DNA from: Candidatus Aenigmatarchaeota archaeon
GTDB lineage: Archaea; Aenigmatarchaeota; Aenigmatarchaeia; QMZP01; QMZT01
Assembly: GCA_026397315.1 (NCBI GenBank)
Contig: JAPLVC010000007.1
Coordinates: forward strand, 1-45,449
Direction of reading: 5' to 3'
DNA: 45,449 nt
This document shows, one piece after another, positions 6,228 to 43,233 of this stretch. Position 1 is the stretch's first letter; each line of letters starts with the position of its first letter. The notes beneath the pieces were generated by a model. It saw only the letters and a program-made list of their open reading frames with translations, was not told the DNA's origin and did no database searches. The position numbers were made by a program, and so were the translations under genes.

Positions 6228-6256
6228 CGACACATGCGCAGCATGTGTCATCCGCT
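6228..6256 (+). repeat. Hairpin repeat, copy 1 (5' of tRNA-Thr)
   Basis: A 29-nt sequence containing a perfect 9-bp hairpin (GACACATGC, loop GCA, GCATGTGTC). It ends 5 nt before the first base of the tRNA. A second copy with two differences sits inside the tRNA intron. Confidence 0.85.
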
Positions 6257-6261
6257 GGTTC

Positions 6262-6417
6262 GCCTCAGTAGCTCAACCCGGCAGAGCGATCGATTTGTAT
6301 CGATATTAAGAGGCCGCGCGCAGGCGCAGCCAATGACTTCGATAAGCCGACACATGCGCAGCATGCGTCATTCGCTAGAATATCGATAGGTTGAGGGTTC
6401 AAATCCCTCCTGGGGCT
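6262..6417 (+). tRNA. tRNA-Thr (anticodon TGT) with 82-nt intron
   Basis: The cloverleaf is complete. The acceptor GCCTCAG (6262-6268) pairs with CTGGGGC (6410-6416) through G-U pairs, with U73 at 6417. The D stem is GCTC/GAGC. The anticodon stem ATCGA (6289-6293) pairs with TCGAT (6383-6387), and the loop TTTGTA/A gives anticodon TGT at 6296-6298. The T arm is GAGGG-TTCAAAT-CCCTC. The intron occupies 6300-6381, between positions 37 and 38, the canonical archaeal site removed by the splicing endonuclease at a bulge-helix-bulge. U73 agrees with threonine. CCA is not encoded. The 3' end serves as the attachment site of the downstream element, which leaves the tRNA intact. Confidence 0.92.
6348..6376 (+). 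repeat. Hairpin repeat, copy 2 (inside tRNA intron)
   Basis: A 29-nt copy of the repeat at 6228-6256 with two substitutions. The arms GACACATGC and GCATGCGTC still pair (one G-U-type change) around a GCA loop. It takes up about a third of the intron. Confidence 0.85.
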
Positions 6418-6419
6418 TT
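6406..6419 (+). other. attL core at tRNA-Thr 3' end
   Basis: CCTCCTGGGGCTTT overlaps the last part of the tRNA and two bases beyond. It is identical to 16049-16062 and differs by one base from 16800-16813. Integration here keeps the tRNA functional. Confidence 0.75.
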
Positions 6420-6471
6420 GGAATTCAGTTCCCACTTAGGGGTTTTCAATATAGACTCTCAGGTGGAATAG

Positions 6472-7596
6472 ATGGATATGAATTCCAACAAGGAAACGAT
6501 AGGGAAATTTATCAATTTCTGCAACAGCGAAGGCCTTTCGGAAGGCCGTTTGAACAAGCTGGAGACGGTTTTGAACAGGCTGTCGGACTGGCTGGGTGTG
6601 GGCTTCAAGGAAGCCGAGAGAACGGACATAGAGGCGCTTGTCGTCAAAATAAACAAGAGCGGCTTCAAGGACTGGACAAAAAGCGACTACAAGAAGATAC
6701 TGAAAAAGTTCTATAAATGGTATGAGGGCGACGGCGAAGAATGTCCGAAAAAGGTCAGATGGATAAAGGTCGGCAAAGTTCAGAGCAGGCGAATGGCCGA
6801 GGAGTTGCTCACACAAGAAGAAGTAAAAACCATGATAGAGCACGCATCCAACGTCAGGGATAAGGCCATAATCTCGGTTTTATACGAATCCGGCTGCAGG
6901 GCAGGGGAACTGCTCGGCCTTAAAATAAAGAGCGTGCAGAACAAAGGCAGTCTGGTTCACATACACGTTTCGGGCAAAACGGGCGATAGGCCGATACCTC
7001 TCGTTTTCTCCATTCCTTACCTTTCATCATGGATCAACAACCATCCGGAAAAGAACAACCCAGAAGCCAGTTTGTTCGTTTCCGTGGGAACGAGGAACAA
7101 CAGCAACCCCATAATATACGACACTTTGGGCAAGATGCTGAGAGACGTTGCCTTGAAGTCGGGGGTAAACAAAAAGGTGAATCCGCACAATTTCAGGCAT
7201 TCGCGAGCGTCGTACCTGGCGAACAAGCTAAAAGAGCCTCAGATGCGCATGTTCTTCGGCTGGGGCAACGACTCGGAAATGCCCGGAACGTATGTTCATC
7301 TGAGCGGCAGGGACATAGACGATGCCATACTCGAAGCGAGCGGCATCAAGAAGCCGGAAACCGACCAGTCAGACAAAACGCTTCATTCCAAGACATGCCC
7401 AAGGTGCAACACAATAAACGAGGCTACGGGGGCATTATGTTCAAAATGCATGTTGTCACTCAATGAGCAGTCAATGGTCGAATATGAGGAAAAAATTAAC
7501 GGGTTGTTGGGATTCCTGAATAATAGGAAAATTTTAGAAAAAATGATAGACGAAAGATTTGAACATAAATTGAAGTTATTCAAAGCACATAAATAG
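6472..7596 (+). CDS. Tyrosine recombinase/integrase with zinc ribbon
   Basis: A 374-residue XerC/D-type site-specific recombinase that should catalyse recombination between the tRNA-Thr site and the element's attachment site. An N-terminal SAM-like DNA-binding domain covers about residues 1-105. The catalytic domain shows R143 (ESGCRAGELLGL), H239-x-x-R242 (PHNFRHSRAS) and the nucleophile Y274 (TYVHLSG). After the catalytic domain is a CPRC...CSKC zinc ribbon at about residues 304-325 and a charged helix. This C-terminal zinc ribbon is common in archaeal integrases. AGGTGG lies about 8 nt before the ATG at 6472. Position directly next to the tRNA end identifies it as the element's integrase. 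Confidence 0.92.
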   Translation: MDMNSNKETIGKFINFCNSEGLSEGRLNKLETVLNRLSDWLGVGFKEAERTDIEALVVKINKSGFKDWTKSDYKKILKKFYKWYEGDGEECPKKVRWIKVGKVQSRRMAEELLTQEEVKTMIEHASNVRDKAIISVLYESGCRAGELLGLKIKSVQNKGSLVHIHVSGKTGDRPIPLVFSIPYLSSWINNHPEKNNPEASLFVSVGTRNNSNPIIYDTLGKMLRDVALKSGVNKKVNPHNFRHSRASYLANKLKEPQMRMFFGWGNDSEMPGTYVHLSGRDIDDAILEASGIKKPETDQSDKTLHSKTCPRCNTINEATGALCSKCMLSLNEQSMVEYEEKINGLLGFLNNRKILEKMIDERFEHKLKLFKAHK

Positions 7597-7617
7597 CATA
7601 GATACAATTCATAAAGG

Positions 7618-8205
7618 ATGAAAAAACACATACGAATAGAGGAATCTTATTTAAGAAGCAAGATGCTTAAGGAATTCAAGAGCATTGACAATTTAAGATT
7701 TTTGTCACTAATTGTCCATCAGTATGTGGAATATTTTTTGAATGAGCTAATTGTCAAAAATGTAAAAAATCCAGAATTGATTATTGATGATAGAGAATTG
7801 GGTACATTTTTTAAAAAGTTTACAATCCTTAAGGCAATAGGGTTATTTGATAGACGACCCGATGTGTTAAGAAACATAGAAGTAATCATGAAAGTTAGGA
7901 ATTATTACGCTCATAACATGATGACAGACAATAAAATACCTAGATTGATAATTGATAAAATTTTGACCATGGCTTTACCTAAAAAGGTTCACGAAACCAT
8001 TAGGAATGGAAAGCAAGTACCAGATGATATTATTAACGCATTGAAAAAAATGAAAGTACCCGAAGGGTATGTCGATGAAGGGGAGGGCAAATATCTAACA
8101 TTGTTTATCGGTCCTATCGATGAAACAAATGAATATTCTATCATCGCTCCATTCATAGTTGGTTCGATTTTAACAATTGAAAGCCTGAAATATCTTTCTG
8201 TTTAA
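7618..8205 (+). CDS. HEPN/MltR-like hypothetical protein
   Basis: A 195-residue AT-rich gene. The mostly helical protein has VRNYYAHNM at about residues 92-100, matching the R-x4-H motif of HEPN RNases and the related MltR/DUF4145-like proteins. HEPN proteins are often toxins or defence RNases, but the motif is short and the rest is not recognised. It starts 21 nt after the integrase stop and is convergent with a putative helix-turn-helix regulator whose stop directly abuts its own. Role as toxin is inference. Confidence 0.5.
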   Translation: MKKHIRIEESYLRSKMLKEFKSIDNLRFLSLIVHQYVEYFLNELIVKNVKNPELIIDDRELGTFFKKFTILKAIGLFDRRPDVLRNIEVIMKVRNYYAHNMMTDNKIPRLIIDKILTMALPKKVHETIRNGKQVPDDIINALKKMKVPEGYVDEGEGKYLTLFIGPIDETNEYSIIAPFIVGSILTIESLKYLSV

Positions 8206-8754
8206 TCATTTAGTCCAATTTTCTTTTTCAGCTTCCATCAAATTAACGACGAAGAGCATTCCAAATTCAGTTAATCTAAATCTCACTCTGCCTCGTTTTG
8301 GAGTATCTTTGAACTTCTTTCTCATCCTGCTTATCATTTTCAATCTTTCCCTTACAACATCCTCCAGTTTCCTTTCCGCTTTGAATTCTGGGAATTCGAT
8401 GCCCTTAACCAGTTCATCCAATTCTTTAAGTAATTTATCATCATTTGGATGTGCCAGAAGTTTTTTTTCTATTTTGTAAACTCCTTTTTTTCTTAATTCT
8501 TTATCGATTCGCCTTGTTTCTTCTCTACCAAAACTCATCTGATTAAACAGTTCACCAAAGTAAAATCGCCGTGGATTCTCTATATTCAGGCGTTCAATTA
8601 AAAGGTGCTTCTCCAAATTTGTTAAAGCCCTAGATAACGAAGTGTTATTTTTGTAAATTTCAAAATCTTTAATCTCACTTCTATTATATACTCGATTGTA
8701 TTTTTCCTTTTCACCCATTCTGAGCATAAGCCTTTGTTCTGGGATTGATATCAT
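8206..8754 (-). CDS. Putative winged-helix regulator
   Basis: A 182-residue basic, helical protein. Residues about 22-60 (SEIKDFEIYKNNTSLSRALTNLEKHLLIERL) look like a winged helix of the type that distinguishes replicate regulators, and the C-terminal part (RVRFRLTEFGMLFV) resembles a closing beta hairpin of a winged helix. It is transcribed divergently from the small genes at 8835, with about 80 nt of AT-rich promoter DNA between. I infer control of element genes; no family is recognised. Confidence 0.5.
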   Translation of the reverse strand: MISIPEQRLMLRMGEKEKYNRVYNRSEIKDFEIYKNNTSLSRALTNLEKHLLIERLNIENPRRFYFGELFNQMSFGREETRRIDKELRKKGVYKIEKKLLAHPNDDKLLKELDELVKGIEFPEFKAERKLEDVVRERLKMISRMRKKFKDTPKRGRVRFRLTEFGMLFVVNLMEAEKENWTK

Positions 8755-8834
8755 AAGAAAATATACATTTTGTGCTTAAACAATTTGCCCTATTGGCAAA
8801 CTATCCGGAAATTTCACTTTTGTCATATATTATC

Positions 8835-8939
8835 ATGGAATTCAAGACCCTTACCGAACTTCTGGATTACGTTGATGCAGAAGTACAGAAAAGGGTGAAC
8901 AAAATAATCGAGGAGAGGGAGCATGACCGAAGCGCATGA
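8835..8939 (+). CDS. 34-residue peptide upstream of HTH gene
   Basis: A short open frame (ATG 8835, TGA 8937-8939) encoding a mostly helical, acidic/basic peptide beginning MEFKTLTELLDYVDAEVQK. An AT-rich TATA-like stretch (CATATATTAT) ends just before it, suggesting a leaderless transcript. Its end overlaps the start of the next gene by 17 nt, and the second gene's GGAGAGGGAG site lies within it, so the two are translationally linked. Function unknown. Confidence 0.5.
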   Translation: MEFKTLTELLDYVDAEVQKRVNKIIEEREHDRSA

Positions 8940-9120
8940 TCTCGAATCCTCAATCATTGATATTCTCAGAAAAAGGCCCGCGAGTGCTGAAACGATATCG
9001 CATATCACAGGCCTCCCATCGAACTCCATCGGCATGAAACTCAGAAGGATGGAGAAATGGAGAATCATCCGACCTATAACGAAGAGGGAGATGCTGATCT
9101 GGAGCATAACGAAGGATTGA
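8923..9120 (+). CDS. Small winged-helix DNA-binding protein
   Basis: A 65-residue protein with one helix-turn-helix: IIDILRKRPASAETISHITG, then LPSNSIGMKLRRMEKWRII and a short wing. This is the MarR/Lrp-like minimal winged-helix pattern seen in archaeal plasmids and viruses, where such proteins control copy number or early genes. It is preceded by GGAGAGGGAG and overlaps the 34-residue peptide gene. It is followed by a GC-rich hairpin. Confidence 0.68.
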   Translation: MTEAHDLESSIIDILRKRPASAETISHITGLPSNSIGMKLRRMEKWRIIRPITKREMLIWSITKD

Positions 9121-9158
9121 CTCGCCGAAAGCGAGCATAGGGGCTTGTCCCCGGCGAG
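9121..9158 (+). other. GC-rich nested hairpin
   Basis: CTCGCCG (9121-9127) pairs with CGGCGAG (9152-9158), enclosing an inner hairpin GGGG-CTTGT-CCCC (9140-9152, sharing one base). It begins directly after the stop of the preceding gene. It could be a transcription end, a structured RNA or a single-strand origin of the element. Confidence 0.5.
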
Positions 9159-9232
9159 CGGAAGGCGTCAATCCACGAACCCGACTGCTGATTTGCCGTT
9201 ATGTCTCCATTTCGACCATAGGAGGTGAAAAA

Positions 9233-9400
9233 ATGGAAATATCAACGCCGATACAGGCGATACGAAAGAAGTGCGTGGAATGCTCTAACAACCAATACAA
9301 AGAGGTACGCAATTGTGAGCTAGCTAGCTGCCCACTTTTTCCGTACAGGATGGGGGTGAGGCCTGAGACGGCCAGAAAGGAATCTGGAAAAACTGCCTAG
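9233..9400 (+). CDS. Phage/plasmid-type Cys-rich miniprotein
   Basis: A 55-residue protein with KKCVECSNNQYKEVRNCELA then SCPLFPYRMG. The spacing C-x2-C-x8-EV-x2-C-x4-CPL-x-PYR-x-G matches a small zinc-finger-like protein frequent in phage and prophage genomes of bacteria, of unknown function. The start is strongly supported by GGAGGTG at 9221-9227, six bases before the ATG. Its 3' end overlaps a palindrome that may be the replication origin, and the rolling-circle initiator gene follows 41 nt later. Confidence 0.75.
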   Translation: MEISTPIQAIRKKCVECSNNQYKEVRNCELASCPLFPYRMGVRPETARKESGKTA

Positions 9401-9411
9401 CTAGCTGGGCA
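9318..9411 (+). other. Candidate double-strand replication origin
   Basis: The palindrome AGCTAGCTAGCT at 9318-9329 followed by GCCC, and a second copy of CTAGCTAGCTG forming the hairpin TGCCTAGC-TA-GCTGGGCA at 9394-9411, lie just upstream of the initiator gene. Rolling-circle origins are typically hairpins next to or inside rep. The nick site is not identifiable from sequence alone. Confidence 0.4.
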
Positions 9412-9441
9412 GAAATCGAAAAATACAGGAGTTTTGAACAT

Positions 9442-10395
9442 ATGCCTAACTTATCAACAAACTGGGAATGTGATTGCTGTCATAACATCAATACGGCATA
9501 TAACAAACGTTGTATAGTATGTGATGTAGAAAGAAGTAATGTAGATAATAGTAACGTTTCAGTTCTTTGTATGGAAACAAGTCAACAGAGGAAATGGCTT
9601 GAAAAGCTGCTTGACAAGGAATACGGGTTTTGTGACGGTGTTTTTCCAAGGAAGGCGATAGTTGACGAGATGAGGGCCAGGGAAATCAAAGCGGCATTGG
9701 ATTTCGAGTTATGCCACAAGAACACTTCTGGTCACATCTGCACCGAGTGTGGAAGGCGTGTCGAACGGCCAAGCACGTGCAAAAACCGCTTGTGCCCACA
9801 ATGTTCTTCGATACGATACGCCATGATAATGAGGAAGTATGAAAAACCAGTCAAGGACATGGTTCATCCCGTCCTTTTGACCGTGAGCATAGGCCACATC
9901 CCGTTGAACTACCCGGAAGTTCTGTCGTATTATCGCCGTCTTTTCTATAAACTGGTGAGGAAGCTGGACAGTAAAATCAGGTCGGGGTTCGTCGTGATAG
10001 AGCTTAGCCCGAAATTCCATCTGCATTTCCACGCCATAATCGACACGCCTTATTACATTCCACAGGAAGAACTCAGCCAGATATGGGAGAAAATAAGCGG
10101 CTATGAATACGTTCATATCAAGAAAATCAACAACAATGAGGCCTTGGCCTATTTGATCAAATACGTGGTAAAATCGCCAGAATTTGAATCGGTTGCATCA
10201 TATGTCAACTATTACCAGATGACGAAGGGTCGAAGGCTTTTCTCCACCATCGGGGCACTTTACAAACTAAAGTCGGTACTTAAAATCAAAGAACGTTGCA
10301 CATGTGGAAGCAATGAGCTGGCTTATTTGCACTTGGAATACGTAGAGCACGACTTCATGATAAAATATTTCGGGTCTATGGACAAGGTGCCGTGA
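9442..10395 (+). CDS. Rolling-circle replication initiator (HUH), RanBP2 finger
   Basis: A 317-residue Rep. The N terminus is a RanBP2-type zinc finger (W-x-C-x2-C-x3-N-x6-C-x2-C, residues about 8-28). A second Cys cluster has CTECGRR and CKNRLCPQC (C113, C118, C121), as in Rep_1/pUB110-like and haloarchaeal plasmid initiators. The metal-binding HUH motif is HLHFH at residues 193-197. The catalytic region is YLIKYVVK (Y237, Y241). A C-terminal CTCG pair ends the protein. Rep nicks the double-strand origin and stays covalently bound by tyrosine to start rolling-circle replication. The RanBP2 finger fused to Rep is unusual. The gene is preceded by a possible origin hairpin. Confidence 0.85.
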   Translation: MPNLSTNWECDCCHNINTAYNKRCIVCDVERSNVDNSNVSVLCMETSQQRKWLEKLLDKEYGFCDGVFPRKAIVDEMRAREIKAALDFELCHKNTSGHICTECGRRVERPSTCKNRLCPQCSSIRYAMIMRKYEKPVKDMVHPVLLTVSIGHIPLNYPEVLSYYRRLFYKLVRKLDSKIRSGFVVIELSPKFHLHFHAIIDTPYYIPQEELSQIWEKISGYEYVHIKKINNNEALAYLIKYVVKSPEFESVASYVNYYQMTKGRRLFSTIGALYKLKSVLKIKERCTCGSNELAYLHLEYVEHDFMIKYFGSMDKVP

Positions 10396-10401
10396 TAATA
10401 A

Positions 10402-11235
10402 TTATGTATTTTGTATTTTAAAGCCAATTTTATTTAATTGAGTTATTTTTTTGTATTCTACTTGAAAAATTCTTTTAGGTGGCAATTTCGGATTTTTTTC
10501 GATATTTCTCAAATACTTTAAATATTTATCGCGTGTCATGGATACATTTTTATAAATTATAGTAAAATCAAATAATGGTTTCAAAAAAGACAACTGCCAC
10601 ACTAATCCAAATGGGCTATATTTTACATTTTTTTTATCATATTCAACAAAAATGATGCATTTTTTGTTTGCAGGATTTTCAACAAGAGACATTCCAATTA
10701 TATTCGCTTCGTCGATTGTTACATAACATCTCTTACCATAATATAAATCACCTTTAATATGATTACATTCCTTTGAAAAAGGATTATTTCCGCATATAGA
10801 GCATGTCGCTTTTTTTGTCACATATTCAACACTGTTGAACATGGTATATGGAAATAATGATTCAATTTTTAGTAAATAATTATATAGCATATTTGAATCA
10901 AAAAAATCGTTACCGTTAACAGATAAATCCAAAACATCTATTGCAAGTAGGCAATCTTGTAAATGATTCCATGAGTCATCTGGTGATGATCTCAAATGAG
11001 TCCAGCATTTAATAAAATGTTCAAATAAATGCCAATAAGCTCTAAAAATAAAATGCTGATTGCAAACAAGTTCACTTTTATCTCCGTTTTTGTCTATCAT
11101 ATTATTTTCAAATTTAATTTTAGATTGAATTAATGTATTAGCATTTTCAAAATCCTCTAATTGAATGTATTTAATTATTTGTTCTTTATCATTCCAAAAA
11201 GAATCATCATCAACCTTTAATTCAATGTTTCTCAT
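10402..11235 (-). CDS. Hypothetical protein with Cys/His cluster
   Basis: A 277-residue, AT-rich gene of unknown function. About residues 144-172 hold CSICGNNPFSKECNHIKGD then YYGKRCY, a probable zinc site (C-x2-C, C-x-H, C), followed by GMSLVENPANKKC. A somewhat similar C-x-H-x2-G-x2-Y-x-G-x-x-C plus SLV-x-PAN pattern appears in some phage proteins. The N-terminal half is helical with many aromatic residues. It is downstream of and overlaps (4 nt) the 196-residue gene, so they form a two-gene operon. A defence or conflict role is a guess from the location. Confidence 0.6.
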   Translation of the reverse strand: MRNIELKVDDDSFWNDKEQIIKYIQLEDFENANTLIQSKIKFENNMIDKNGDKSELVCNQHFIFRAYWHLFEHFIKCWTHLRSSPDDSWNHLQDCLLAIDVLDLSVNGNDFFDSNMLYNYLLKIESLFPYTMFNSVEYVTKKATCSICGNNPFSKECNHIKGDLYYGKRCYVTIDEANIIGMSLVENPANKKCIIFVEYDKKNVKYSPFGLVWQLSFLKPLFDFTIIYKNVSMTRDKYLKYLRNIEKNPKLPPKRIFQVEYKKITQLNKIGFKIQNT

Positions 11236-11822
11236 AACCTATCTATTATCTCAGAAATTTTTTCTCCAGTGAAAGTATTTTTTATATCGTTTGCGGGGCC
11301 ATCATACTCTAATTTTAGCATACTTTTTTTGTCACGTTTTTCTATTTGAATTTTGAAATGTATCTGGTTTTTAGAATTAGAAAAAATTCTTGGATACTTA
11401 TTTTTTAGATATTCTATGACTATATCAACTACACTCTCAATGCCTACTTTTAGAATAAAATCTATTCCTAAAGTGATGATAGGTAGATAAGAATCTATAT
11501 TATTTAAACTCAATATTTCTTCTGGGTCGGACAAATAAGTGGCATTTTGTTGCGTTTCTTGATTTACGTATTTTACAAAATCAGCTGTTTCTTTTGGATA
11601 TAACCAATTTTTATTAGCTCTCCATCCTCTATTAGGAGTTATGAAAATACATGGTTCATTTTTCTTTATTTTTTCCTTTGCCTCTGCGGAAAGAACTTCA
11701 CTATAAGTTTCAAAATTAATATTTTCCTCTGCAATTTTCAAAGACATAAAAAATAGATGATTTTTGACCTTATAAATTTCTGTTTCCAATTTACTATCTT
11801 CATTATATAAAAAATTCAGCAT
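11232..11822 (-). CDS. Hypothetical protein, first gene of two-gene operon
   Basis: A 196-residue AT-rich gene not matched to a family by eye. The N-terminal half is charged and helical, the centre has TPNRGWRANKNWLYPKE, and there is a hydrophobic stretch SYLPIITLGIDFILKVGIES (about 110-130) that could be buried or a weak membrane segment. The C terminus is beta-rich with charged residues. Its stop overlaps the start of the next gene (ATGA-type), so the two are co-translated. Confidence 0.55.
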   Translation of the reverse strand: MLNFLYNEDSKLETEIYKVKNHLFFMSLKIAEENINFETYSEVLSAEAKEKIKKNEPCIFITPNRGWRANKNWLYPKETADFVKYVNQETQQNATYLSDPEEILSLNNIDSYLPIITLGIDFILKVGIESVVDIVIEYLKNKYPRIFSNSKNQIHFKIQIEKRDKKSMLKLEYDGPANDIKNTFTGEKISEIIDRL

Positions 11823-11842
11823 ATTTCAAAATTACTTAATAT

Positions 11843-12208
11843 TTATTGAATTTTTTCAATCAGAATGCTTCTTTTTTTCTGTATTTCCTTGATTCTTTGC
11901 AACAGAAAAAACTTCCACTTCGGCTTGTACGTGTGAACGAAGATTATTGGCGTATTTTCCAGCTTGTATATCTTTTGCCTGAAAGAATAGTCGATGTTTG
12001 GGTTGCCGCACACCTCGACATAAATTCCAAATTCGGAAAGGAAGAAGTCGGGTGTCCATATCCTCGGTCTGTCCTTGTGGTCGGTGATGAATAGCGGTTG
12101 TTCAAAAACCCACCATAGTTTCTTGAATTTGAGGAATTCCGCTACTTTCTTCTCCTCCGCAGTCATTTCTTCATAAATGCTGAAATGTTGATGGAGGCTG
12201 TTTTCCAT
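11843..12208 (-). CDS. PD-(D/E)XK-like nuclease fold protein
   Basis: A 121-residue protein with the core WTPDFFLSEFGIYVEVCGNP, matching the PD...(D/E)-x-K nuclease strand-turn-strand (compare very-short-patch-repair-like and DUF559-like proteins), then a helix (DYSFRQKIYKLEN) and strand IIFVHTYKP. The usual lysine of E-x-K is replaced by Cys (EVCG), so it may be an inactive or variant enzyme. It is transcribed divergently from a small winged-helix gene, with palindromic sites between. Confidence 0.65.
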   Translation of the reverse strand: MENSLHQHFSIYEEMTAEEKKVAEFLKFKKLWWVFEQPLFITDHKDRPRIWTPDFFLSEFGIYVEVCGNPNIDYSFRQKIYKLENTPIIFVHTYKPKWKFFLLQRIKEIQKKRSILIEKIQ

Positions 12209-12232
12209 GATTGAACTATGAATTTATAATAT

Positions 12233-12290
12233 AAATGTTTGTATAAAACATTTGGATACTCGATTGTAAGAACGTTTATACAAAATGTTT
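12233..12290. promoter_or_regulatory. Palindromic operator between divergent genes
   Basis: A perfect 8-bp inverted repeat AAATGTTT (12233-12240)-GTATA-AAACATTT (12246-12253) is followed by a related partial copy (GTTTATACAAAATGTTT, 12274-12290) ending 2 nt before the ATG at 12293. A TATA-like stretch, TTTATAATAT, precedes it (about 12222-12231). Likely a site for the neighbouring winged-helix protein. Confidence 0.6.
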
Positions 12291-12292
12291 AT

Positions 12293-12502
12293 ATGACCAG
12301 CAAGCACGAACCGGACGTATTGTCAATTCTCTCAACAAACGAAATCAAAAGCACGAACCAGGTTCTCAAGGAACTCGAAAAAATAACGGGCAAGAAAATC
12401 AACTGGCATGTCCTATACAGGATTCTCATGGATCTCGAAAGGGACGGAAAAATAGAAAGGCTAAAGGCCGATGCCGGATTTTTTTGGAAAAAACGAGATT
12501 GA
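12293..12502 (+). CDS. Small winged-helix regulator
   Basis: A 69-residue protein, almost wholly a winged helix: SKHEPDVLSILSTNEIK, then STNQVLKELEKITGK, INWHVLYRILMDLERDGKIER and a short wing. This is the PadR/ArsR-like size and arrangement of small archaeal element regulators. I start at the ATG at 12293; an upstream in-frame ATG at 12239 would read through the operator repeats. Its 3' end overlaps by 42 nt the end of the convergent gene on the minus strand. Confidence 0.65.
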   Translation: MTSKHEPDVLSILSTNEIKSTNQVLKELEKITGKKINWHVLYRILMDLERDGKIERLKADAGFFWKKRD

Positions 12503-13642
12503 ATATTTGCAATTTAAAAATTCAATCCACTTATCCAGAGGTGATGGTTCATAATATGGTTCTAACATAATTTCAAAAATAAGTATTTCTGGCAAATGAA
12601 AAAATGTGAATAACCAAAAATAAAAAGATCTTTTTTCTCTGAAATCTTTCTCCAAAAAACCACCTCGGCAACAAACAAACCAAGGGGAGATTCTAGTCAT
12701 TTTAGAAAAGTTTTTGATTTTTGGCGGATTAATTGCTATAATCGAAGGGTAATACCTCCCTTTTTTTTCAAATTTAAATTTGAAATATATTTTACCTTGA
12801 ATTTCAGGTAAAAAATTCTCTTTTCTTCCATATCTTATTTTAGTAAAATCTTTACCTAATGAATTATTAATTATCACTTCATGACCCTTTGGTATTTCTT
12901 TCATCCCAACAAAATTAAGGAAATATTTCAATTCTGTTCCTAACATCATTAATGAATCAATGTATGGACGTTCGGCCCAATTACTGAGATACAGGGTAAA
13001 GGTGATATTTTTTATTTTTTTATGTGTGGAATCACCTGATAAAATAAGTATGTAAAAAGACCCAGAATAAACAATTTTAAACGTGAAATTATTTTCCTTT
13101 ACGTTTTTCAAAGAAGAATAAAAGTTTTCTATGCCGTGGCCACAAAATTTTATTTTTCTTGATTTCAATAGCCAGAATCCATCCCTTTTTCTGGATAGAT
13201 TTGATGTTATTAAATTTTCAAACCCATAAAGGATTTTCAAGTCTAGATCTTTTAAATCAAATTTTGTTTTATATAAACGATAATGAATGTAATCACTTAA
13301 CACATTATAATGCGTCTCGAATGGAAAATCTGGTAAAAAAATAATATCTTCATTTATAGCATAATTTTTATAATTGAAAAATTTATTTCCATCGATAGTT
13401 TTGTATTTTGTTATCTTCTCATACTCTTTACACAATGCATTAAATCCTTTAACTGTTAAGATAAATTTTTTATTTTTAGTTTGAATATAACCAGTTCTGA
13501 TTAAACTTTTAATTATCTTTATTATTTTTTCATCCTTTTCCTCAAAAAGTTGAGATAAAGATTTAGCATCATAACCTTTTACAATATATGAAAGAATGGT
13601 AGAGTGACCTGATTTCATAAAAAATAAATCTATTAAAAGCAT
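12461..13642 (-). CDS. Hypothetical protein with N-terminal winged helix
   Basis: A 393-residue AT-rich gene with no family I recognise. Residues about 10-70 (GHSTILSYIVKGYDAKSLSQ then IIKSLIRTGYIQTKNKKFILT) look like a winged helix. The remaining 320 residues are rich in aromatic and Lys residues with alternating strands. The start at 13642 lies 17 nt from the divergently transcribed nuclease gene; an ATG at 13618 is an alternative. The tight divergence and matching composition suggest the two genes arrived and work together. Confidence 0.6.
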   Translation of the reverse strand: MLLIDLFFMKSGHSTILSYIVKGYDAKSLSQLFEEKDEKIIKIIKSLIRTGYIQTKNKKFILTVKGFNALCKEYEKITKYKTIDGNKFFNYKNYAINEDIIFLPDFPFETHYNVLSDYIHYRLYKTKFDLKDLDLKILYGFENLITSNLSRKRDGFWLLKSRKIKFCGHGIENFYSSLKNVKENNFTFKIVYSGSFYILILSGDSTHKKIKNITFTLYLSNWAERPYIDSLMMLGTELKYFLNFVGMKEIPKGHEVIINNSLGKDFTKIRYGRKENFLPEIQGKIYFKFKFEKKGRYYPSIIAINPPKIKNFSKMTRISPWFVCCRGGFLEKDFREKRSFYFWLFTFFHLPEILIFEIMLEPYYEPSPLDKWIEFLNCKYSISFFPKKSGIGL

Positions 13643-13659
13643 AAAAATGAAACTTTCTT

Positions 13660-14625
13660 ATGAATTTCCAAAAAATTTGGATTAAACGGAAAGAGGAAGA
13701 TATACACGACTGTTTAAAAAAGGCTTATGTGAAGTTAGGATACGAAGTAAATAATATTCACGCAAGTGATCGAAGTCATGAAAACGGTATAGATTTGGAA
13801 TGTATAAACGCCGAAGAGATCATACATATACAAGCAAAACTCAAACCTGTTTCATCCGATATAAAACAATTAAAAAATTTTGCAAGATCTAAAGCAGATA
13901 AAAAAATATATGTTTATGTTTTAGATCCATCAAGAAAATTCGATGAAGAAATAAAAAATTATAAAGAAAAGATAAATTTTTGGAATGCCGAACAATTACA
14001 TGAATTCTTTTTGAAAACTGAGATACCCAGTTATATCAGATTGTTATTCTTGTCGTCAGATTTAATTCAAACAATTATCGAAACACTAAAAGAAATAAAT
14101 AAATCAAAAAAAGTAAAAAAGACCGAACTAAAAACCGAACAGTTGCGAGATTGGTGGATTTTAAAGGATAGAGCAGTGAAATTACATGCAAATTTAGAAT
14201 TTTTAAGAGACGCTTACCAAACAGAACTCTTAAAAAAGGACAGAATTGAAATTTCTGAAGTCAAAAAATATATCGATGATTTAATGAAAAAGTTTGAATT
14301 AATAAATCAGAGTTCTGCAATTGATTTGCTTTATATTTTCAAAAAAATAAATTCTGTATATCCTTCACTTATTTCTAAATTCATAAACGTGACTGAACGT
14401 CGTTCGAATTGGACTGGTTTCCCCTTTCATCTCGATGCAGACAAAAAGTATTTGGAAGAATTATTAATAGAAAATTGGTTATTAGCAAAATTAGATGAGG
14501 TATCTTTTTTCGGTTTTATTAATTATTGTCTCAAAGACCTAAAAGAAGCAGCGAAGGCGATAGAAGATGGTGTTGATTGGGTTCATGAAGATAGGTTTAA
14601 GATATCAGAACTTGAGCATCTTTAA
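13660..14625 (+). CDS. Mrr-like PD-(D/E)XK nuclease
   Basis: A 321-residue protein. The N-terminal domain has the Mrr/restriction-endonuclease arrangement: a helix (DIHDCLKKAYVKLGYEV), then HENGIDLECINAEEII, IHIQAKLKP (Q-x-K in place of E-x-K) and a helix starting DIKQLKNFA. Q-x-K variants are common in Mrr-type enzymes of type IV restriction and other defence systems. The C-terminal 170 residues are helical and not recognised. It is divergent from the 393-residue gene. A role in restricting incoming DNA is plausible but inferred. Confidence 0.68.
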   Translation: MNFQKIWIKRKEEDIHDCLKKAYVKLGYEVNNIHASDRSHENGIDLECINAEEIIHIQAKLKPVSSDIKQLKNFARSKADKKIYVYVLDPSRKFDEEIKNYKEKINFWNAEQLHEFFLKTEIPSYIRLLFLSSDLIQTIIETLKEINKSKKVKKTELKTEQLRDWWILKDRAVKLHANLEFLRDAYQTELLKKDRIEISEVKKYIDDLMKKFELINQSSAIDLLYIFKKINSVYPSLISKFINVTERRSNWTGFPFHLDADKKYLEELLIENWLLAKLDEVSFFGFINYCLKDLKEAAKAIEDGVDWVHEDRFKISELEHL

Positions 14626-14680
14626 AATTATGAAAATGAGTTTGACAACAAAATTATTTAAATATAATCTTTTAAGTCAC

Positions 14681-14698
14681 ATTTTAGAATTCTAAAAT
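14681..14698. promoter_or_regulatory. Perfect 18-bp palindrome before the ATG
   Basis: ATTTTAGAATTCTAAAAT is a perfect palindrome that ends one base before the ATG at 14699. TTTTAA (14670-14675) is a likely TATA box, so the palindrome covers the expected transcription start and would suit a repressor. Confidence 0.65.
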
Positions 14699-15019
14699 AT
14701 GACCCAAAACAGAACTGAATATTGCCGGCAGTATTACCAGAAAAACAGGGAAACTCTCCTAGCCAAATCCAAGGTTTATTACCAGAAGCACAAGGAAGGA
14801 AAGAAAGAATATTTCAAGGCATACATCTCAAAGCCTGAAAACAAAAAAAGGAAGAATTCTTACCTTAAAAAATACACTAAACAACTAGAAATCAAGGAAG
14901 CCGACAAGAAACGCAAACAAAAAATGAAGGAATGGTATAGGAAATACCATCTGGAATATTACCATAAGAACAAGGAAAGAATTAATGACCAACGTCGGAA
15001 TAATACTTTAAAACGGTGA
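14699..15019 (+). CDS. Lys/Tyr-rich repeat protein
   Basis: A 106-residue, very basic protein built of degenerate repeats of the type CRQYYQKNRE, VYYQKHKEG, YHKNKER. Such YY-x-K-N-x-E repeats occur as DNA-binding arms in phage and plasmid proteins, often linked to HNH or other endonucleases. The stop is immediately followed (+1 frame) by a nuclease-like open frame lacking its own start, so the two may have been one gene. A perfect palindrome overlaps the transcription start region. Confidence 0.6.
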   Translation: MTQNRTEYCRQYYQKNRETLLAKSKVYYQKHKEGKKEYFKAYISKPENKKRKNSYLKKYTKQLEIKEADKKRKQKMKEWYRKYHLEYYHKNKERINDQRRNNTLKR

Positions 15020-15404
15020 AATTATTTCAGAAGATAAAGCGTCTATTGAAAGTTGGGAGAGAACATACAGAAAGTTATATCCTAAGAATGAAGGATGGAT
15101 AATAAGACAAAAGGGATTTCCTGATCGGGTTGTGTTTAATAAAAAAACAAAGGAATTAATTTTTTATGAAATCAAAGCCGGAATTCACAAGCTTCATAAG
15201 ACACAACATGAGATGATGTTAATACTGAAAGAAGGTAAAAAAACAAAAGCTTTCTTATGTGAATATGAATCTAAATCTGGGGAAAAAATTAAACCAGATC
15301 AACCCATCACATTAGACACACCTTCCAAGGATTGGGAAGGTGTCAAAGCGCCATACTTTAAATTAAAGGCTGAACGAATAAAAAAGAAGTGTAACAATGC
15401 GTGA
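15012..15404 (+). pseudogene. VRR-NUC-like nuclease fragment, start missing
   Basis: The frame is open from 15012 to 15404, but its only usual start (GTG 15132) lies within the catalytic core. The unstarted part reads SWERTYRK, then GWIIRQKGFPDRVVF, KTKELIFYEIKAG and HKLHKTQHEMM: P-D...E-x-K plus a Q helix, the VRR-NUC/Holliday-resolvase-like nuclease pattern. The upstream gene ends at 15019 in the neighbouring frame, so a +1 shift would join both into one protein of about 230 residues. It may be a decayed gene, a programmed frameshift, a sequencing error or use a rare start such as ATT 15021. It overlaps the next gene by 8 nt, suggesting it was recently functional. Confidence 0.55.
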
Positions 15405-15969
15405 AAAATTAAAAAATAGCGTGATATATTCCTCCCCAGTTATAGGCATAATTGCTTTATTTTATCTATTGTCTTATGCTTTGCCGTCGCTTACTATCGA
15501 ATCTGTATTAACTATCTCACTATCGGTGCCAGCAATATTGTTCACTTATTATAATTATTTTTTTACGGCAAAAGAAAAAATGAGACCGAAACCATCTTTA
15601 GAATTAAAAAATTTTACATTTTCCTTTTCACCCGGTCAAAAAAATCCCCCAGATGAAAATCTTCCAGATGGATACAACGATACACCTTCGACCCTCAACG
15701 GCAGTTTTAAAATTTTCAATACAGGTAAAGTTGATGCTACAAACGTTAGAGGAAACGCTGTGTTTAAGGATATAAGTGATGGTCGGGTCGTTCACGAAAT
15801 TGACTTTGCTTCATTAATTAATATTCCAAAGGAAAAAGGGAATGTGATAATGGATTTTCCTACCGTATATACTTTAGAAAAGGATAAAGATTTTGAAATT
15901 ATTATGATTCTAAAATGCAATGAATGCCCTGAAGGTATACGCTTTACAAAAAATGTAAAAACTGGGTGA
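15397..15969 (+). CDS. Membrane-anchored hypothetical protein
   Basis: A 190-residue protein with two N-terminal membrane segments (about 8-30, IYSSPVIGIIALFYLLSYAL, and 38-56, VLTISLSVPAILFTYYNYFF) and a soluble C-terminal beta-rich domain (about 65-190) with two cysteines (CNEC). It overlaps the preceding nuclease frame by 8 nt, so it is translationally coupled to it. It is the last gene before the right attachment site. Resembles membrane-effector partners seen in conflict systems only by general form; no family is recognised. Confidence 0.6.
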   Translation: MREKLKNSVIYSSPVIGIIALFYLLSYALPSLTIESVLTISLSVPAILFTYYNYFFTAKEKMRPKPSLELKNFTFSFSPGQKNPPDENLPDGYNDTPSTLNGSFKIFNTGKVDATNVRGNAVFKDISDGRVVHEIDFASLINIPKEKGNVIMDFPTVYTLEKDKDFEIIMILKCNECPEGIRFTKNVKTG

Positions 15970-16013
15970 ACAACGGACTTTAATCCTTTTAAAACAAGAA
16001 TTTCATAATATAA

Positions 16014-16062
16014 TAGAAACCTTCTAACTGGGAATTAAGTTCTATCGTCCTCCTGGGGCTTT
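16014..16062 (+). other. Right attachment site (attR)
   Basis: This 49-nt sequence ends with the 14-nt core identical to the tRNA-Thr 3' end (16049-16062) and shares 40 of 49 bases with 16765-16813. The part left of the core is the element's own arm. Confidence 0.7.
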
Positions 16063-16067
16063 ACACC

Positions 16068-16084
16068 TGGGGATTAAATCCCCA
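16068..16084. repeat. 17-nt inverted repeat beyond attR
   Basis: TGGGGATT-A-AATCCCCA is a perfect inverted repeat 5 nt past the attachment core. It may be an integrase or excisionase site or part of a transcription end. Confidence 0.5.
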
Positions 16085-16120
16085 AATGTACTCAGTCCAC
16101 GGTCTTCTGTCCTCACCGAG

Positions 16121-16309
16121 TATGGAAGATGTAAGGAAACCCTGCTTAGTTCTACCAGCGAAAACAACCATGAAATTATAACCCGGTTTCTGAATTACGA
16201 TCTTGTCGGGAAAGACAGAATTGAAGCAGTCAAACTGGGCAGGAACTGGTTCATAAAAAAGGATGTGCTGGAGAGGTATGCCAACAGGAAAAGGACTGAT
16301 GCGTCATAG
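16121..16309 (+). pseudogene. Excisionase-like fragment
   Basis: The frame open from 16028 to the TAG at 16307-16309 has no usual start codon. Its end reads IEAVKLGRNWFIKKDVLERY, matching the second half of the HTH_17/excisionase family (the usual form is ...VKLGRRWRIPREDLE...). The first helix-turn-helix part is not recognisable. It lies just beyond the right attachment site, so it is probably the remnant of another integrating element's recombination-directionality factor. Confidence 0.45.
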
Positions 16310-16377
16310 CCCCTCCTGAATTACTTTATATGCCATCAGATTAATCTCCAACTACTTAACACTTGGGGGTATTTGTT

Positions 16378-16641
16378 ATGAAAATTGTAAAAAGAAATGA
16401 CACGCGAGAGGACTTCGACAGTAATAAACTTAGAAGAGCTATTGAAAAGGCGGCAGCAGACGCAAACATCGCCAGTAATAGGGCCACGGAAATAGCAAAC
16501 AGTGCTGTAAGAGACGTTGAGGAACATTTCAAGAGCAGAGATGAAGTGAGAAGTGCGGATATTAAAAAAAGGGTTCTAGAAGTATTGGACACTGAAGGGA
16601 AAAAAGTCTCTAATGCCGCCAGGAATTTCAAAAAACAGTAA
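16378..16641 (+). CDS. Stand-alone ATP-cone protein
   Basis: An 87-residue protein, nearly all one ATP-cone domain: MKIVKRNDTREDFDSNKLRRAI, then ATEIANSAVRDVEEHF and IKKRVLEVLDTEGKKVSNAARNF. ATP-cones bind ATP/dATP and are normally the allosteric part of ribonucleotide reductases or NrdR. As a separate protein it may control nucleotide metabolism or transcription in response to dATP, but no partner is nearby. The ATG at 16378 has GGGGG about 8 nt upstream. It sits between the two attachment-like repeats and is followed by a terminator-like hairpin. Confidence 0.8.
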   Translation: MKIVKRNDTREDFDSNKLRRAIEKAAADANIASNRATEIANSAVRDVEEHFKSRDEVRSADIKKRVLEVLDTEGKKVSNAARNFKKQ

Positions 16642-16662
16642 GTCAGAAATTCGTTTGCTTTT

Positions 16663-16686
16663 GGGGTGCATTGCCCCCTTTCCTTT
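16663..16686 (+). terminator. Terminator-like hairpin after ATP-cone gene
   Basis: GGGG (16663-16666) and CCCC (16674-16677) form a stem with a 7-nt loop, followed by the T-rich TTTCCTTTTT. It lies about 20 nt after the stop of the ATP-cone gene. Confidence 0.55.
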
Positions 16687-16764
16687 TTACATGTAAATTA
16701 TTAAAAAACACTACCCTTTTAAACCTGAAGCTGGCCGTCCACGTAATTCTTGATAATAAATAGG

Positions 16765-16813
16765 TAGAAACCCCTTATCTGAGAATTCGGTTCTAACGTC
16801 CTCTTGGGGCTTT
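16765..16813 (+). repeat. Second attachment-like repeat
   Basis: A 49-nt direct repeat of 16014-16062 (40 of 49 identical); the core differs from the tRNA end by one base (CCTCTTGGGGCTTT). It marks a possible older right boundary. Between the two repeats lie only the excisionase fragment and the ATP-cone gene. The rest of 16687-16943 holds no gene. Confidence 0.6.
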
Positions 16814-20345: not shown

Positions 20346-21962
20346 ATGAAGGCGAAAATCCTATTGATTCTCGCGATAATTTCTCTTATTTTAATAGATT
20401 TTTCTGGATTCGTTTTTGCGGAATCTAACTGCCAAATAGCTGTTCCGAGATTTGGTGTGGTTGAATGTAAAAATACGGGACAAAAACAAACATTAACCGG
20501 AAAATTTGAATATCGGGATGGGTGGTATTATGCCCAAAATACAGTTTGTCTATCCAACTGTGAAATAATAGCAAATTCCAACATACATTTATCGGGTTGT
20601 ACCGGGAGTGTATATTCGTGGGAGATATGGAAAAAGGCAAACGGTGTAGCTAACTGGACAGAAATAGCTTGGCCGTACCACAATGACAATGTTCAAATTA
20701 ATTGGAACAGAGATGATTTACTTTCTATAAGAACCAAATGCTCAATAGGCGGTCAACTCAATATCGAATCCTCATATGTGGAGTTTCAACAAGATTTAAT
20801 TAAACTTTATGAGGGGTGGGGAGGCTCTTTACCAACAAAACCGATAGATGGAACTGAAGGATGTAGTTTAAACACAATAGTAGACCAATACAGAGAAACA
20901 TTAAATTTGAATAGTTGGGTAAATCCATCCACAGGATCAATCGAGAATAATCCTTATCCCACAAGCACATACTCTTCTACAAACGTTATGCCTACTAATT
21001 GGAGAATATCCGATAATTACGTGTTTGTAAAGGATTGGGAAACAGGAATAGCTGATATTTCTCTTACATATGATAAAAATAATAACGCATTCTGGTGCGG
21101 AGGTAACATTGGAAGTAGAAAAATATACAATGTACAGGAAATAACAGCTGTTACAGGGCAATGTTATTCTATTCCAACATCAATTAAGTATTCTTCGATA
21201 GAATGTTGTTTTCCCGCTGATTGTTCCTTTAAAGGAACAACTTATACTTGCAATCCAGATACTTGGAAGTGCGAAGAAACCAGATGGTGTGACTCTGATT
21301 TAGACTGTCAACAAGTTTTTGGGGAAGGTGTATGTAAAAATAAACAAATAACAAAGTGGTCTTGCAACATAAATAAAAAATGGGGAAGTCATCAAGGAAC
21401 ATGTGAAAAAAACATTAGATCGGTTTTGCAATGCCCGGAAGATTGTACCACAAGTGAATATTACAATGAAATAGAAGGTCAGTGTAAATCTTTAAATATT
21501 CTTTTAAATTGCCCAACAGGGAGTTGCTGCGAAGAAGGCGGTGATTATAAAATCGAACCTTGTTCATCTGGACTCAAATGCTGTCATCCAACAAACCCTA
21601 TTGTTGGTGAATGTAAAATTTCTTGTGGAGCGGAAAGTCAGATAGTTGAGAGAACTGCGGGCTTAGAGAATGTAGATTATGATAAATCATCAACTTCAAA
21701 CTATCAAGCAATAAATCAACTATTTCCGTTTTTTGTTTTAATGATAATAATTTTAGCTGGACCAATAATTTATTACTTGAACAGTAGAGGGTACATAAGT
21801 TTCCTAATAAAATCTAAAACCAACACAGGTAAACCAAAACATTTGGAGAGAAAAATTAGAAAAGATAAGGTAGAAAAATCTGGAAATGGTTTCTGTCAAT
21901 ATTGTGGAAATAAATTGGAAAATAGTGATGCCTTTTGTCCAGAGTGCGGGAGGAAAGTCTAA
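20346..21962 (+). CDS. Secreted Cys-rich membrane protein with zinc ribbon
   Basis: A 538-residue protein. It starts with a signal peptide (ILLILAIISLILIDFSGFVFA), then a large extracellular part with many Cys, including CCFPADCSFKG, CDSDLDCQQVFG and CEEGGDYK, similar to the Cys-rich modules in archaeal surface proteins such as the one at 34569. A membrane helix at about 460-482 (FFVLMIIILAGPIIYYL) is followed by a cytoplasmic basic segment and a C-terminal zinc ribbon (CQYCGN...CPECG, about 517-535). The gene is AT-rich. It is head to tail with the next gene (no gap). Role unknown. Confidence 0.7.
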   Translation: MKAKILLILAIISLILIDFSGFVFAESNCQIAVPRFGVVECKNTGQKQTLTGKFEYRDGWYYAQNTVCLSNCEIIANSNIHLSGCTGSVYSWEIWKKANGVANWTEIAWPYHNDNVQINWNRDDLLSIRTKCSIGGQLNIESSYVEFQQDLIKLYEGWGGSLPTKPIDGTEGCSLNTIVDQYRETLNLNSWVNPSTGSIENNPYPTSTYSSTNVMPTNWRISDNYVFVKDWETGIADISLTYDKNNNAFWCGGNIGSRKIYNVQEITAVTGQCYSIPTSIKYSSIECCFPADCSFKGTTYTCNPDTWKCEETRWCDSDLDCQQVFGEGVCKNKQITKWSCNINKKWGSHQGTCEKNIRSVLQCPEDCTTSEYYNEIEGQCKSLNILLNCPTGSCCEEGGDYKIEPCSSGLKCCHPTNPIVGECKISCGAESQIVERTAGLENVDYDKSSTSNYQAINQLFPFFVLMIIILAGPIIYYLNSRGYISFLIKSKTNTGKPKHLERKIRKDKVEKSGNGFCQYCGNKLENSDAFCPECGRKV

Positions 21963-22457
21963 ATGACAAATAAAGCGTTGATTGTTATAGGAATTCTTGT
22001 TGTGGGATTTACCTTTTTTGTTAATTATATAATGTTCACGCCGCAGGAAATTTCTGTTCTTAAAAGCGCGGATTTTCTTTGCAATTTTCAAATTGGCGGT
22101 TACAATATAGGTCAATTTGGACAAGCCATTGCAGAGTATGTTGCGCCTGAACTTGTTAGAACATGCGAAAAGGCCAAAACATTTATGCCTTTCATCCAAT
22201 ATGAATTTTACCTTTACGTTTTAGGTTTAATCATACTTGTTATTGGTCTTGCTGTTGGTGAAAAAAGAGAAAAAATAATAATAAAGGAAGTTGAAAAACA
22301 CATACCATTTACACATGAAAAAGGATCTGAAACAGAAAAGAATGAAATTAAAATATTGAAAAAGGAAGATAGTGCTGAAATAAAATTTTGTCGAAAATGT
22401 GGCAATAAAATAAAAAAAAGTGTTAAGTTTTGTAACAAGTGCGGTAATAAAATATGA
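21963..22457 (+). CDS. Membrane protein with C-terminal zinc ribbon
   Basis: A 164-residue protein with two membrane segments (about 5-23, ALIVIGILVVGFTFFVNYIM, and 80-100, FYLYVLGLIILVIGLAVG), an acidic/basic linker and a zinc ribbon CRKCGN...CNKCGNK at the C terminus (about 141-162). The ribbon resembles the one ending the preceding 538-residue protein, so the two may share a partner or form one membrane complex. Its stop overlaps the next start by 4 nt. Confidence 0.65.
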   Translation: MTNKALIVIGILVVGFTFFVNYIMFTPQEISVLKSADFLCNFQIGGYNIGQFGQAIAEYVAPELVRTCEKAKTFMPFIQYEFYLYVLGLIILVIGLAVGEKREKIIIKEVEKHIPFTHEKGSETEKNEIKILKKEDSAEIKFCRKCGNKIKKSVKFCNKCGNKI

Positions 22458-23050: not shown

Positions 23051-23068
23051 ACATAGCCTTTTAAGGCA
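23045..23068 (+). promoter_or_regulatory. Second island promoter
   Basis: GTTTAAACATA (23045-23055) and the palindrome GCCTTTTAAGGC (23057-23068) lie 19-42 nt before the ATG at 23087. They repeat the arrangement at 20305-20326, so the island has two similar promoters. Confidence 0.55.
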
Positions 23069-23086
23069 AAGTTCAAATTATGAACT

Positions 23087-43110: not shown

Positions 43111-43233
43111 GAATATGTATGTGCAGCCTTTCTTTATATTGGTTTGATACGGGCGCATCCGAACTGCCAAAAGCCCCGCCAGCGCCGCAACAATAACCAA
43201 AGTTTAAATAGAGCCTAGCCCCAAATATTCATT

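What the first reader, a model, noticed from the sequence alone, without database searches (positions are those of the whole stretch)
6406..16813. Integrative rolling-circle plasmid at a tRNA gene with a RanBP2-finger initiator
A complete set is present: tRNA 3'-end attachment core repeated exactly at 16049-16062, an integrase with all catalytic residues, a HUH initiator (HLHFH, YLIKYVVK), small winged-helix proteins and cargo. The initiator carries an N-terminal RanBP2-type zinc finger, which I do not know from described archaeal rolling-circle initiators. The combination may define an undescribed family of archaeal integrative plasmid.
Basis: partly seen in the sequence, partly recalled or inferred. 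Interest (0 to 1): 0.75.

Follow-up and report, generated by a model that had tools for sequence, protein, structure and literature searches.

The report
Archaeal tRNA-integrated rolling-circle plasmid
A 9.6-kb mobile DNA element, apparently able to cut itself out and copy itself as a circle, sits at the end of a threonine tRNA gene in an uncultured Aenigmatarchaeota archaeon. It is a real new example of a broadly known kind, and the unusual zinc finger on its replication protein was not found in its nearest relatives.

Summary
The element is real. An intron-containing tRNA-Thr(UGU) gene (6262-6417) ends in a 14-bp core, CCTCCTGGGGCTTT. Its only other exact copy in the 1.05-Mb genome is at 16049-16062. 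Between them lie a complete tyrosine recombinase, a HUH initiator (Pfam Rep_1, over cut-off), small DNA-binding proteins and nuclease-like cargo in AT-rich DNA. A sister genome has the same kinase-MFS-tRNA-Thr order with no integrase.

The element proper ends at 16062. The stretch 16063-16813 is a separate remnant of a second, tandem element with its own att copy.

The integrase belongs to a mainly archaeal group with a C-terminal zinc ribbon (31 of 42 complete copies). In 20 of 60 loci it sits just 3' of a tRNA gene. The Rep is linked to a recombinase in all three clear archaeal homologues found: this one, a second Aenigmatarchaeota element, and a 3.6-kb Thermoplasmatota element with its own 13-bp att at tRNA-Gly.

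The RanBP2-like finger matches the consensus spacing and retrieves only RanBP2/NZF fingers from the PDB. It scores below Pfam's cut-off and is absent from both related Reps, so it is a private feature and does not define a family. Excision and replication are inferred, not shown.

The parts
6262..6417 (+). tRNA-Thr(UGU) with an intron of about 83 nt; chromosomal target, left intact by integration
   Evidence: Rfam RF00005 51.6 bits; ARAGORN -i; sister-genome orthologues are Thr TGT; spliced fold
6406..6419 (+). attL core CCTCCTGGGGCTTT (tRNA T-arm/acceptor 3' end)
   Evidence: exact copy at 16049; unique pair in the genome
6421..6431 (+). putative integrase arm site GAATTCAGTTC beside attL
   Evidence: resembles GAATTAAGTTC (16032-16042) and GAATTCGGTTC (16783-16793) beside the other cores; function inferred
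6472..7596 (+). tyrosine recombinase (XerA-like integrase) with C-terminal zinc ribbon
   Evidence: PF00589 1.6e-22; archaeal XerA model 4e-30, below its equivalog cut-off; ribbon conserved in 31/42 complete relatives
7618..8205 (+). unknown 195-aa protein
   Evidence: no family over cut-off
8206..8754 (-). unknown 182-aa protein, possible winged helix
   Evidence: ORF only; no Pfam match
8923..9120 (+). small winged-helix protein
   Evidence: weak wHTH/TrmB/MarR matches
9114..9175 (+). strongest predicted hairpin of the element, intergenic, about 270 nt upstream of rep; candidate double-strand origin or terminator
   Evidence: lowest energy of all 70-nt windows; z only -0.91 against shuffles; inference
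9233..9400 (+). 55-aa Cys-rich protein (CxxC...CPLFPYRMG), resembles small phage zinc proteins (own knowledge)
   Evidence: ORF; no family over cut-off
9442..10395 (+). HUH rolling-circle initiator (Rep_1/G2P type) with N-terminal RanBP2-like finger (residues 8-27)
   Evidence: PF01446 2.9e-9, PF23343 7e-8; HUH core of AF2 model matches SIRV1 Rep 2x3g; finger matches RanBP2/NZF fingers in PDB
10402..11235 (-). cargo, unknown 277-aa protein with Cys cluster
   Evidence: no family
11232..11822 (-). cargo, weak AbiEi-like match
   Evidence: PADLOC AbiEi 3.5e-4; weak
11843..12208 (-). cargo, PD-(D/E)XK-like nuclease candidate
   Evidence: PADLOC HEAT_CxxC_PDDEXK 1.6e-3; weak
12239..12502 (+). PadR-like winged helix
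   Evidence: PF03551 0.007; weak
12461..13642 (-). cargo, 393-aa protein with N-terminal winged helix
   Evidence: weak HTH matches
13660..14625 (+). cargo, Mrr-type restriction-endonuclease-like protein
   Evidence: PF04471 3.4e-4, just at cut-off
14699..15969 (+). three small ORFs (14699, 15132, 15397), the last probably membrane-anchored
   Evidence: ORFs; no family
16049..16062 (+). attR core of the element (circle = 9643 bp)
   Evidence: exact repeat of attL
16063..16813 (+). remnant of a second tandem element: HTH_17-like (excisionase-type) fragment near 16110-16306, ATP-cone ORF 16378-16641, own att-like core 16800-16813
   Evidence: 52-nt 81% repeat of att plus arm; HTH_17 9e-4; ATP-cone 1e-12

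Best explanation
This is an integrated rolling-circle-type plasmid of Aenigmatarchaeota. The integrase recombines a 14-bp core in the plasmid (attP) with the identical core at the 3' end of tRNA-Thr(UGU), placing the plasmid downstream and leaving the tRNA gene whole. Reversal would release a 9643-bp circle. The HUH Rep would then nick an origin, perhaps the hairpin upstream of rep, and drive rolling-circle replication. Restriction- and Abi-like cargo probably serves competition with other elements. A second, related element once sat in tandem and survives as the 751-bp remnant 16063-16813. Shown: att pair and its uniqueness, integrase-free tRNA locus in a sister genome, intact catalytic motifs, HUH fold core, recurrence of Rep+Int elements. 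Inferred: excision, replication, origin, cargo roles.
For: Exact 14-bp att pair unique in the genome. Sister genome G001 has kinase-MFS-tRNA-Thr in the same order with no integrase, and G005 has tRNA-Thr after the kinase with no integrase. Element GC is about 25-35% over most of its cargo against about 50% in the flanks. 20 of 60 related integrases lie just 3' of a same-strand tRNA, and one Micrarchaeota copy has a 15-bp att pair 8.7 kb apart. A Rep homologue and a recombinase lie between 13-bp att repeats at tRNA-Gly in Thermoplasmatota. A third Rep+Int pair with the same integrase type is in another Aenigmatarchaeota genome. The HUH core matches SIRV1 Rep.
Against: No excised circle or extrachromosomal relative was found: there was no close relative among viral contigs, phages or plasmids. 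No att was found for the second Aenigmatarchaeota element. Across 60 integrase loci the same Rep occurs in only one, so Rep and integrase are not an obligate pair. The AF2 model is poor outside the HUH core. No origin was proven.
Confidence: 0.82

Rival explanations
1. A fixed genomic island: the integrase put it there, but the Rep is a passenger and the element no longer excises or replicates.
For: A decayed second unit lies beside it; no circular form was found; related Reps are rare.
Against: int and rep are open with all motifs; both att cores are identical; the Rep HUH and Tyr motifs are conserved with two divergent relatives.
Confidence: 0.12
2. An archaeal virus (for example pleolipovirus-like) provirus rather than a plasmid.
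For: Pleolipoviruses combine an integrase and a rolling-circle Rep and integrate in host genomes (PMC13107129, PMC6668415).
Against: No capsid, spike or packaging gene was recognised in the ORFs scanned; Rep matches Rep_1/G2P and no PHROG family.
Confidence: 0.04
3. An IS91-like HUH transposon inserted inside an ordinary tRNA island.
For: Weak Zn_Tnp_IS91 and IS91 matches in the zinc region.
Against: Rep_1 and G2P score better; the IS91 match covers only the zinc module; Rep neighbours a recombinase in all three genuine homologues.
Confidence: 0.02

Closest known systems
Rep_1 (PF01446) / pUB110-pC194-like HUH plasmid initiators
   Same: HUH and Tyr motifs, zinc module, over Pfam cut-off; 25-27% identity to Macrococcus/Staphylococcus plasmid Reps
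   Different: Archaeal, chromosome-integrated, extra N-terminal finger; PMC6668415 reports only a handful of archaeal members in the pUB110-like cluster
Betapleolipoviruses such as SNJ2 (PMC13107129)
   Same: Integrase plus rolling-circle-type initiator in one archaeal element that excises before replicating
   Different: SNJ2 Rep is Rep-Arvir (Rep_trans-like), not Rep_1; SNJ2 is a virus; no virion genes were recognised here
Bacterial integrative plasmids encoding HUH Reps (PMC6668415) and pSAM2-type elements
   Same: Integrated, HUH Rep
   Different: Different domain of life and Rep cluster; a match to RepSA appears only in the Thermoplasmatota relative
tRNA-integrated archaeal elements with tyrosine recombinases (reviewed in PMC8371274; Thaumarchaeota iMGEs PMC6563490)
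   Same: tRNA target, integrase-borne integration, tandem integrations
   Different: Zinc-ribbon integrase; 'zinc' does not occur in the main text of PMC8371274; Rep_1-type Rep
Micrarchaeota element L080 (this study)
   Same: Same integrase type, tRNA-Asp att pair, about 8.7 kb, wHTH-like protein
   Different: An ATPase-like replication candidate in place of a HUH Rep (no Pfam match)

Membership tests
tRNA-integrated mobile element with tyrosine recombinase | tRNA 3'-end sequence repeated at the far end | tested here: met
   14/14, genome-unique
tRNA-integrated mobile element with tyrosine recombinase | intact catalytic R-K-HxxR-H/W-Y | tested here: met
tRNA-integrated mobile element with tyrosine recombinase | locus without the element in a relative | tested here: met
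   G001 L034 has kinase-MFS-tRNA-Thr with no integrase; only the left flank is syntenic
tRNA-integrated mobile element with tyrosine recombinase | excised circle detected | not testable with these tools
   needs reads or PCR
Rep_1 (PF01446) | score over the curated cut-off | tested here: met
   37.2 against 33.2 bits
Rep_1 (PF01446) | HUH and Tyr motifs on an HUH fold | tested here: met
   motifs; AF2 core pLDDT about 70, top PDB match SIRV1 Rep E 3e-4
Rep_1 (PF01446) | rolling-circle replication from a nicked origin | not testable with these tools
   only a candidate hairpin
RanBP2-type zinc finger (PF00641) | Pfam curated cut-off | tested here: not met
   10.5 against 27 bits, E 0.38 on the 41-residue N-terminus
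RanBP2-type zinc finger (PF00641) | W-x-C-x2-C-x3-N-x6-C-x2-C spacing | tested here: met
   only W-type match in 0.92 million residues of ORFs scanned
RanBP2-type zinc finger (PF00641) | best sequence relatives are RanBP2/NZF fingers | tested here: met
   PDB hits are RanBP2/NZF-type (Nup153, ZRANB2, YAF2, TAB3), single-domain scores weak; two control ribbons mostly retrieve other zinc proteins
Family defined by finger-bearing Rep | finger shared by related Reps | tested here: not met
   absent from L099 and L128 Reps
Pleolipoviridae-like provirus | virion protein genes | tested here: not met
   none recognised among the ORFs scanned
SSV-type integrase | att inside int, gene split on integration | tested here: not met
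   int intact, att 52 bp upstream

The most novel reading that the evidence does not exclude
These elements are part of a modular, mainly archaeal family of tRNA-integrating plasmids built round a zinc-ribbon tyrosine recombinase, with interchangeable replication modules (HUH Rep here, an ATPase in Micrarchaeota), spread across DPANN and Thermoplasmatota. In this member a RanBP2-like finger was captured by the Rep and helps it bind single-stranded nucleic acid or a host partner.
Probability: 0.25. Interest if true: 0.6.

Novelty: new variant of a known kind. Interest (0 to 1): 0.42.

Why it matters
Mobile elements of DPANN archaea are poorly known. A bounded 9.6-kb element with its own integrase, att sites and Rep is a natural starting point for a plasmid or integrating vector for a lineage with no genetics. 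It also shows a plasmid-type Rep_1 initiator in an archaeal integrative element, and a zinc ribbon as a recurrent part of a widespread archaeal integrase group. The finger-bearing Rep raises a testable question about why an initiator would carry a finger best known from eukaryotic RNA-, ubiquitin- or Ran-binding proteins.

Tried and rejected
ARAGORN without introns finds no tRNA; with introns it calls Tyr, corrected to Thr by orthologues. Rep searches of viral contigs and phages gave nothing; in plasmids only remote bacterial Rep_1 proteins. Apparent Rep hits in G009 (high-GC contig, probably contamination), G072 (Cdc6-like locus) and G082:C134 (PD-DExK-like protein) were rejected on inspection. 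G137:C80 and G523:C205 are inovirus-like contigs, not this family. No att repeat was found for the G082 element. pC194-type nick motifs occur only as scattered chance-like matches. Haloarchaeal plasmids carry related integrases but Orc1/Cdc6 where a replication gene is annotated nearby, not this Rep. The integrase tree is poorly resolved round the window sequence. The AF2 model says nothing about the finger (pLDDT about 23).
Full report
Observation. The window is contig C6 of a 1.05-Mb archaeal genome. A relative in the same class, G082, is Candidatus Aenigmatarchaeota: its contig has the same length and integrase as the titled record JAPLUX010000096, so the host is placed there. The tRNA at 6262-6417 is matched by Rfam and by ARAGORN only when introns are allowed. 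ARAGORN's Tyr label is wrong: sister genomes have tRNA-Thr(TGT) in the matching position, and the spliced exons fold as a Thr cloverleaf. The 14-bp core at the tRNA 3' end recurs exactly at 16049-16062 and nowhere else in the genome. A one-mismatch copy is at 16800-16813. None of 2000 Markov shuffles reproduced any 14-mer of the tRNA 3' end.

Boundaries. The third core matters. Cores two and three share 35 nt of upstream sequence, as part of a 52-nt stretch that is 81% identical. In an integrated element the sequence left of the right-hand core belongs to the element, so two elements with the same attachment arm were integrated in tandem. The first spans 6406-16062 (9643 bp as a circle). The second is reduced to 751 bp with an HTH_17-like fragment and an ATP-cone ORF. 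A short motif, GAATTCAGTTC/GAATTAAGTTC/GAATTCGGTTC, lies beside all three cores and may be an integrase arm site; this is inference.

Empty site. In G001 of the same family the order kinase-MFS-tRNA-Thr is kept, with an intron in the tRNA, and the tRNA is followed by unrelated host genes without an integrase. In G005 tRNA-Thr follows the kinase without an integrase. Right flanks are not syntenic, so the empty site is shown on the left side only.

Integrase. The protein has the Phage_integrase domain, the catalytic set and a C-terminal zinc ribbon. A genome-wide scan gave 60 relatives in DPANN archaea, Thermoplasmatota, Methanosarcina, Archaeoglobus and a few bacteria. In 20 of 60 the nearest tRNA lies just upstream on the same strand, and 31 of 42 complete copies carry the ribbon. 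A Micrarchaeota copy at tRNA-Asp has a 15-bp att pair 8.7 kb apart. These show what the integrase does without relying on this window alone. The tree does not resolve its closest kin.

Rep. The protein passes Pfam cut-offs for Rep_1 and REP_ORF2-G2P. AF2 with two sequences gives a usable model only for the HUH core (pLDDT about 70). Its best PDB match is the SIRV1 Rep, followed by circular single-stranded DNA virus Reps. Searches of 156 genomes of the phylum, and samples of 371 and 390 genomes of two other archaeal phyla, gave two genuine homologues. G082 (L036/L099) has int, Rep and a coiled-coil protein within 3.4 kb, with an integrase of the same type. G622 (L128, Thermoplasmatota) has tRNA-Gly, Rep, HNH and a different recombinase, bounded by a 13-bp repeat of the tRNA 3' end. 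A more remote Rep lies beside another recombinase on a Thermoplasmatota contig (L121). So Rep is linked to a recombinase in every genuine homologue, but the reverse is not true: only one of 60 integrase loci has this Rep. The modules are exchanged.

Finger. Residues 8-27 fit W-x-C-x2-C-x3-N-x6-C-x2-C. The integrase's ribbon has the same Cys and Asn spacing without the Trp, so spacing alone is weak evidence. As a control, phmmer against the PDB retrieves RanBP2/NZF-type fingers for the Rep peptide, whereas the integrase ribbons mostly retrieve ribosomal and other zinc proteins (two TAB2 NZF entries appear weakly in the second). Pfam's RanBP model gives only 10.5 bits against a cut-off of 27. 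I read it as a RanBP2-like finger of moderate certainty. Neither related Rep has it. Archaeal precedent exists: in the control genomes Sulfolobus acidocaldarius has a match, though below cut-off, and papers on its ArnA mention this finger type (search, not read).

Mechanism. Most likely the integrase excises a 9643-bp circle, restoring attB, and Rep starts rolling-circle replication. The strongest predicted hairpin of the element, 9114-9175, lies between small genes upstream of rep and is a candidate origin, though not exceptional against shuffles. On circularisation the right-end forward ORFs (14699-15969) would lie directly upstream of int on the same strand. SNJ2 shows a related excision-formed replication operon (PMC13107129), so this is a testable parallel, not evidence. 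Cargo has weak matches to Mrr, AbiEi and PD-(D/E)XK proteins.

Novelty. Integrative plasmids with HUH Reps are known in bacteria, and archaeal viruses combine integrase and rolling-circle Rep (PMC6668415, PMC13107129). A few literature searches found no description of this kind of element in Aenigmatarchaeota, but the library is partial. I place it as a new variant of a known kind.

Noticed in passing
16063-16813: Remnant of a second tandem element with its own att-like core, an HTH_17-like fragment and an ATP-cone ORF.
   Followed up: partly
6229-6249 and 6349-6369: A near-palindromic GACACATGCGCAGCATGYGTC repeat lies upstream of the tRNA and again inside its intron; no other copy in the window.
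   Followed up: partly
L054-L113 integrases: A conserved C-terminal zinc ribbon in a widespread, mainly archaeal group of tRNA-targeting integrases (31 of 42 complete copies).
   Followed up: partly
20346-23833 and 40279-43200: Two further AT-rich stretches with large orphan genes; the first includes two proteins ending in zinc ribbons. Possibly other acquired islands.
   Followed up: no
L118 (G137:C80, 4153 bp) and L125 (G523:C205, 3322 bp): Inovirus-like contigs (Zot-like ATPase plus HUH Rep) in DPANN bins; archaeal inovirus or contamination.
   Followed up: no
L121: Thermoplasmatota 6.5-kb contig with a different recombinase and a G2P-type Rep 2.7 kb apart: another candidate integrative element.
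   Followed up: partly
L050 1261-4570: Viral contig with a reverse transcriptase (GxxxSQ-type motif) next to a repeat-rich protein: looks like a diversity-generating retroelement.
   Followed up: no
G000:C3:64073-64942 (L035): Second zinc-ribbon integrase in the same genome, 26% identical, no tRNA found within the 20 kb held.
   Followed up: no
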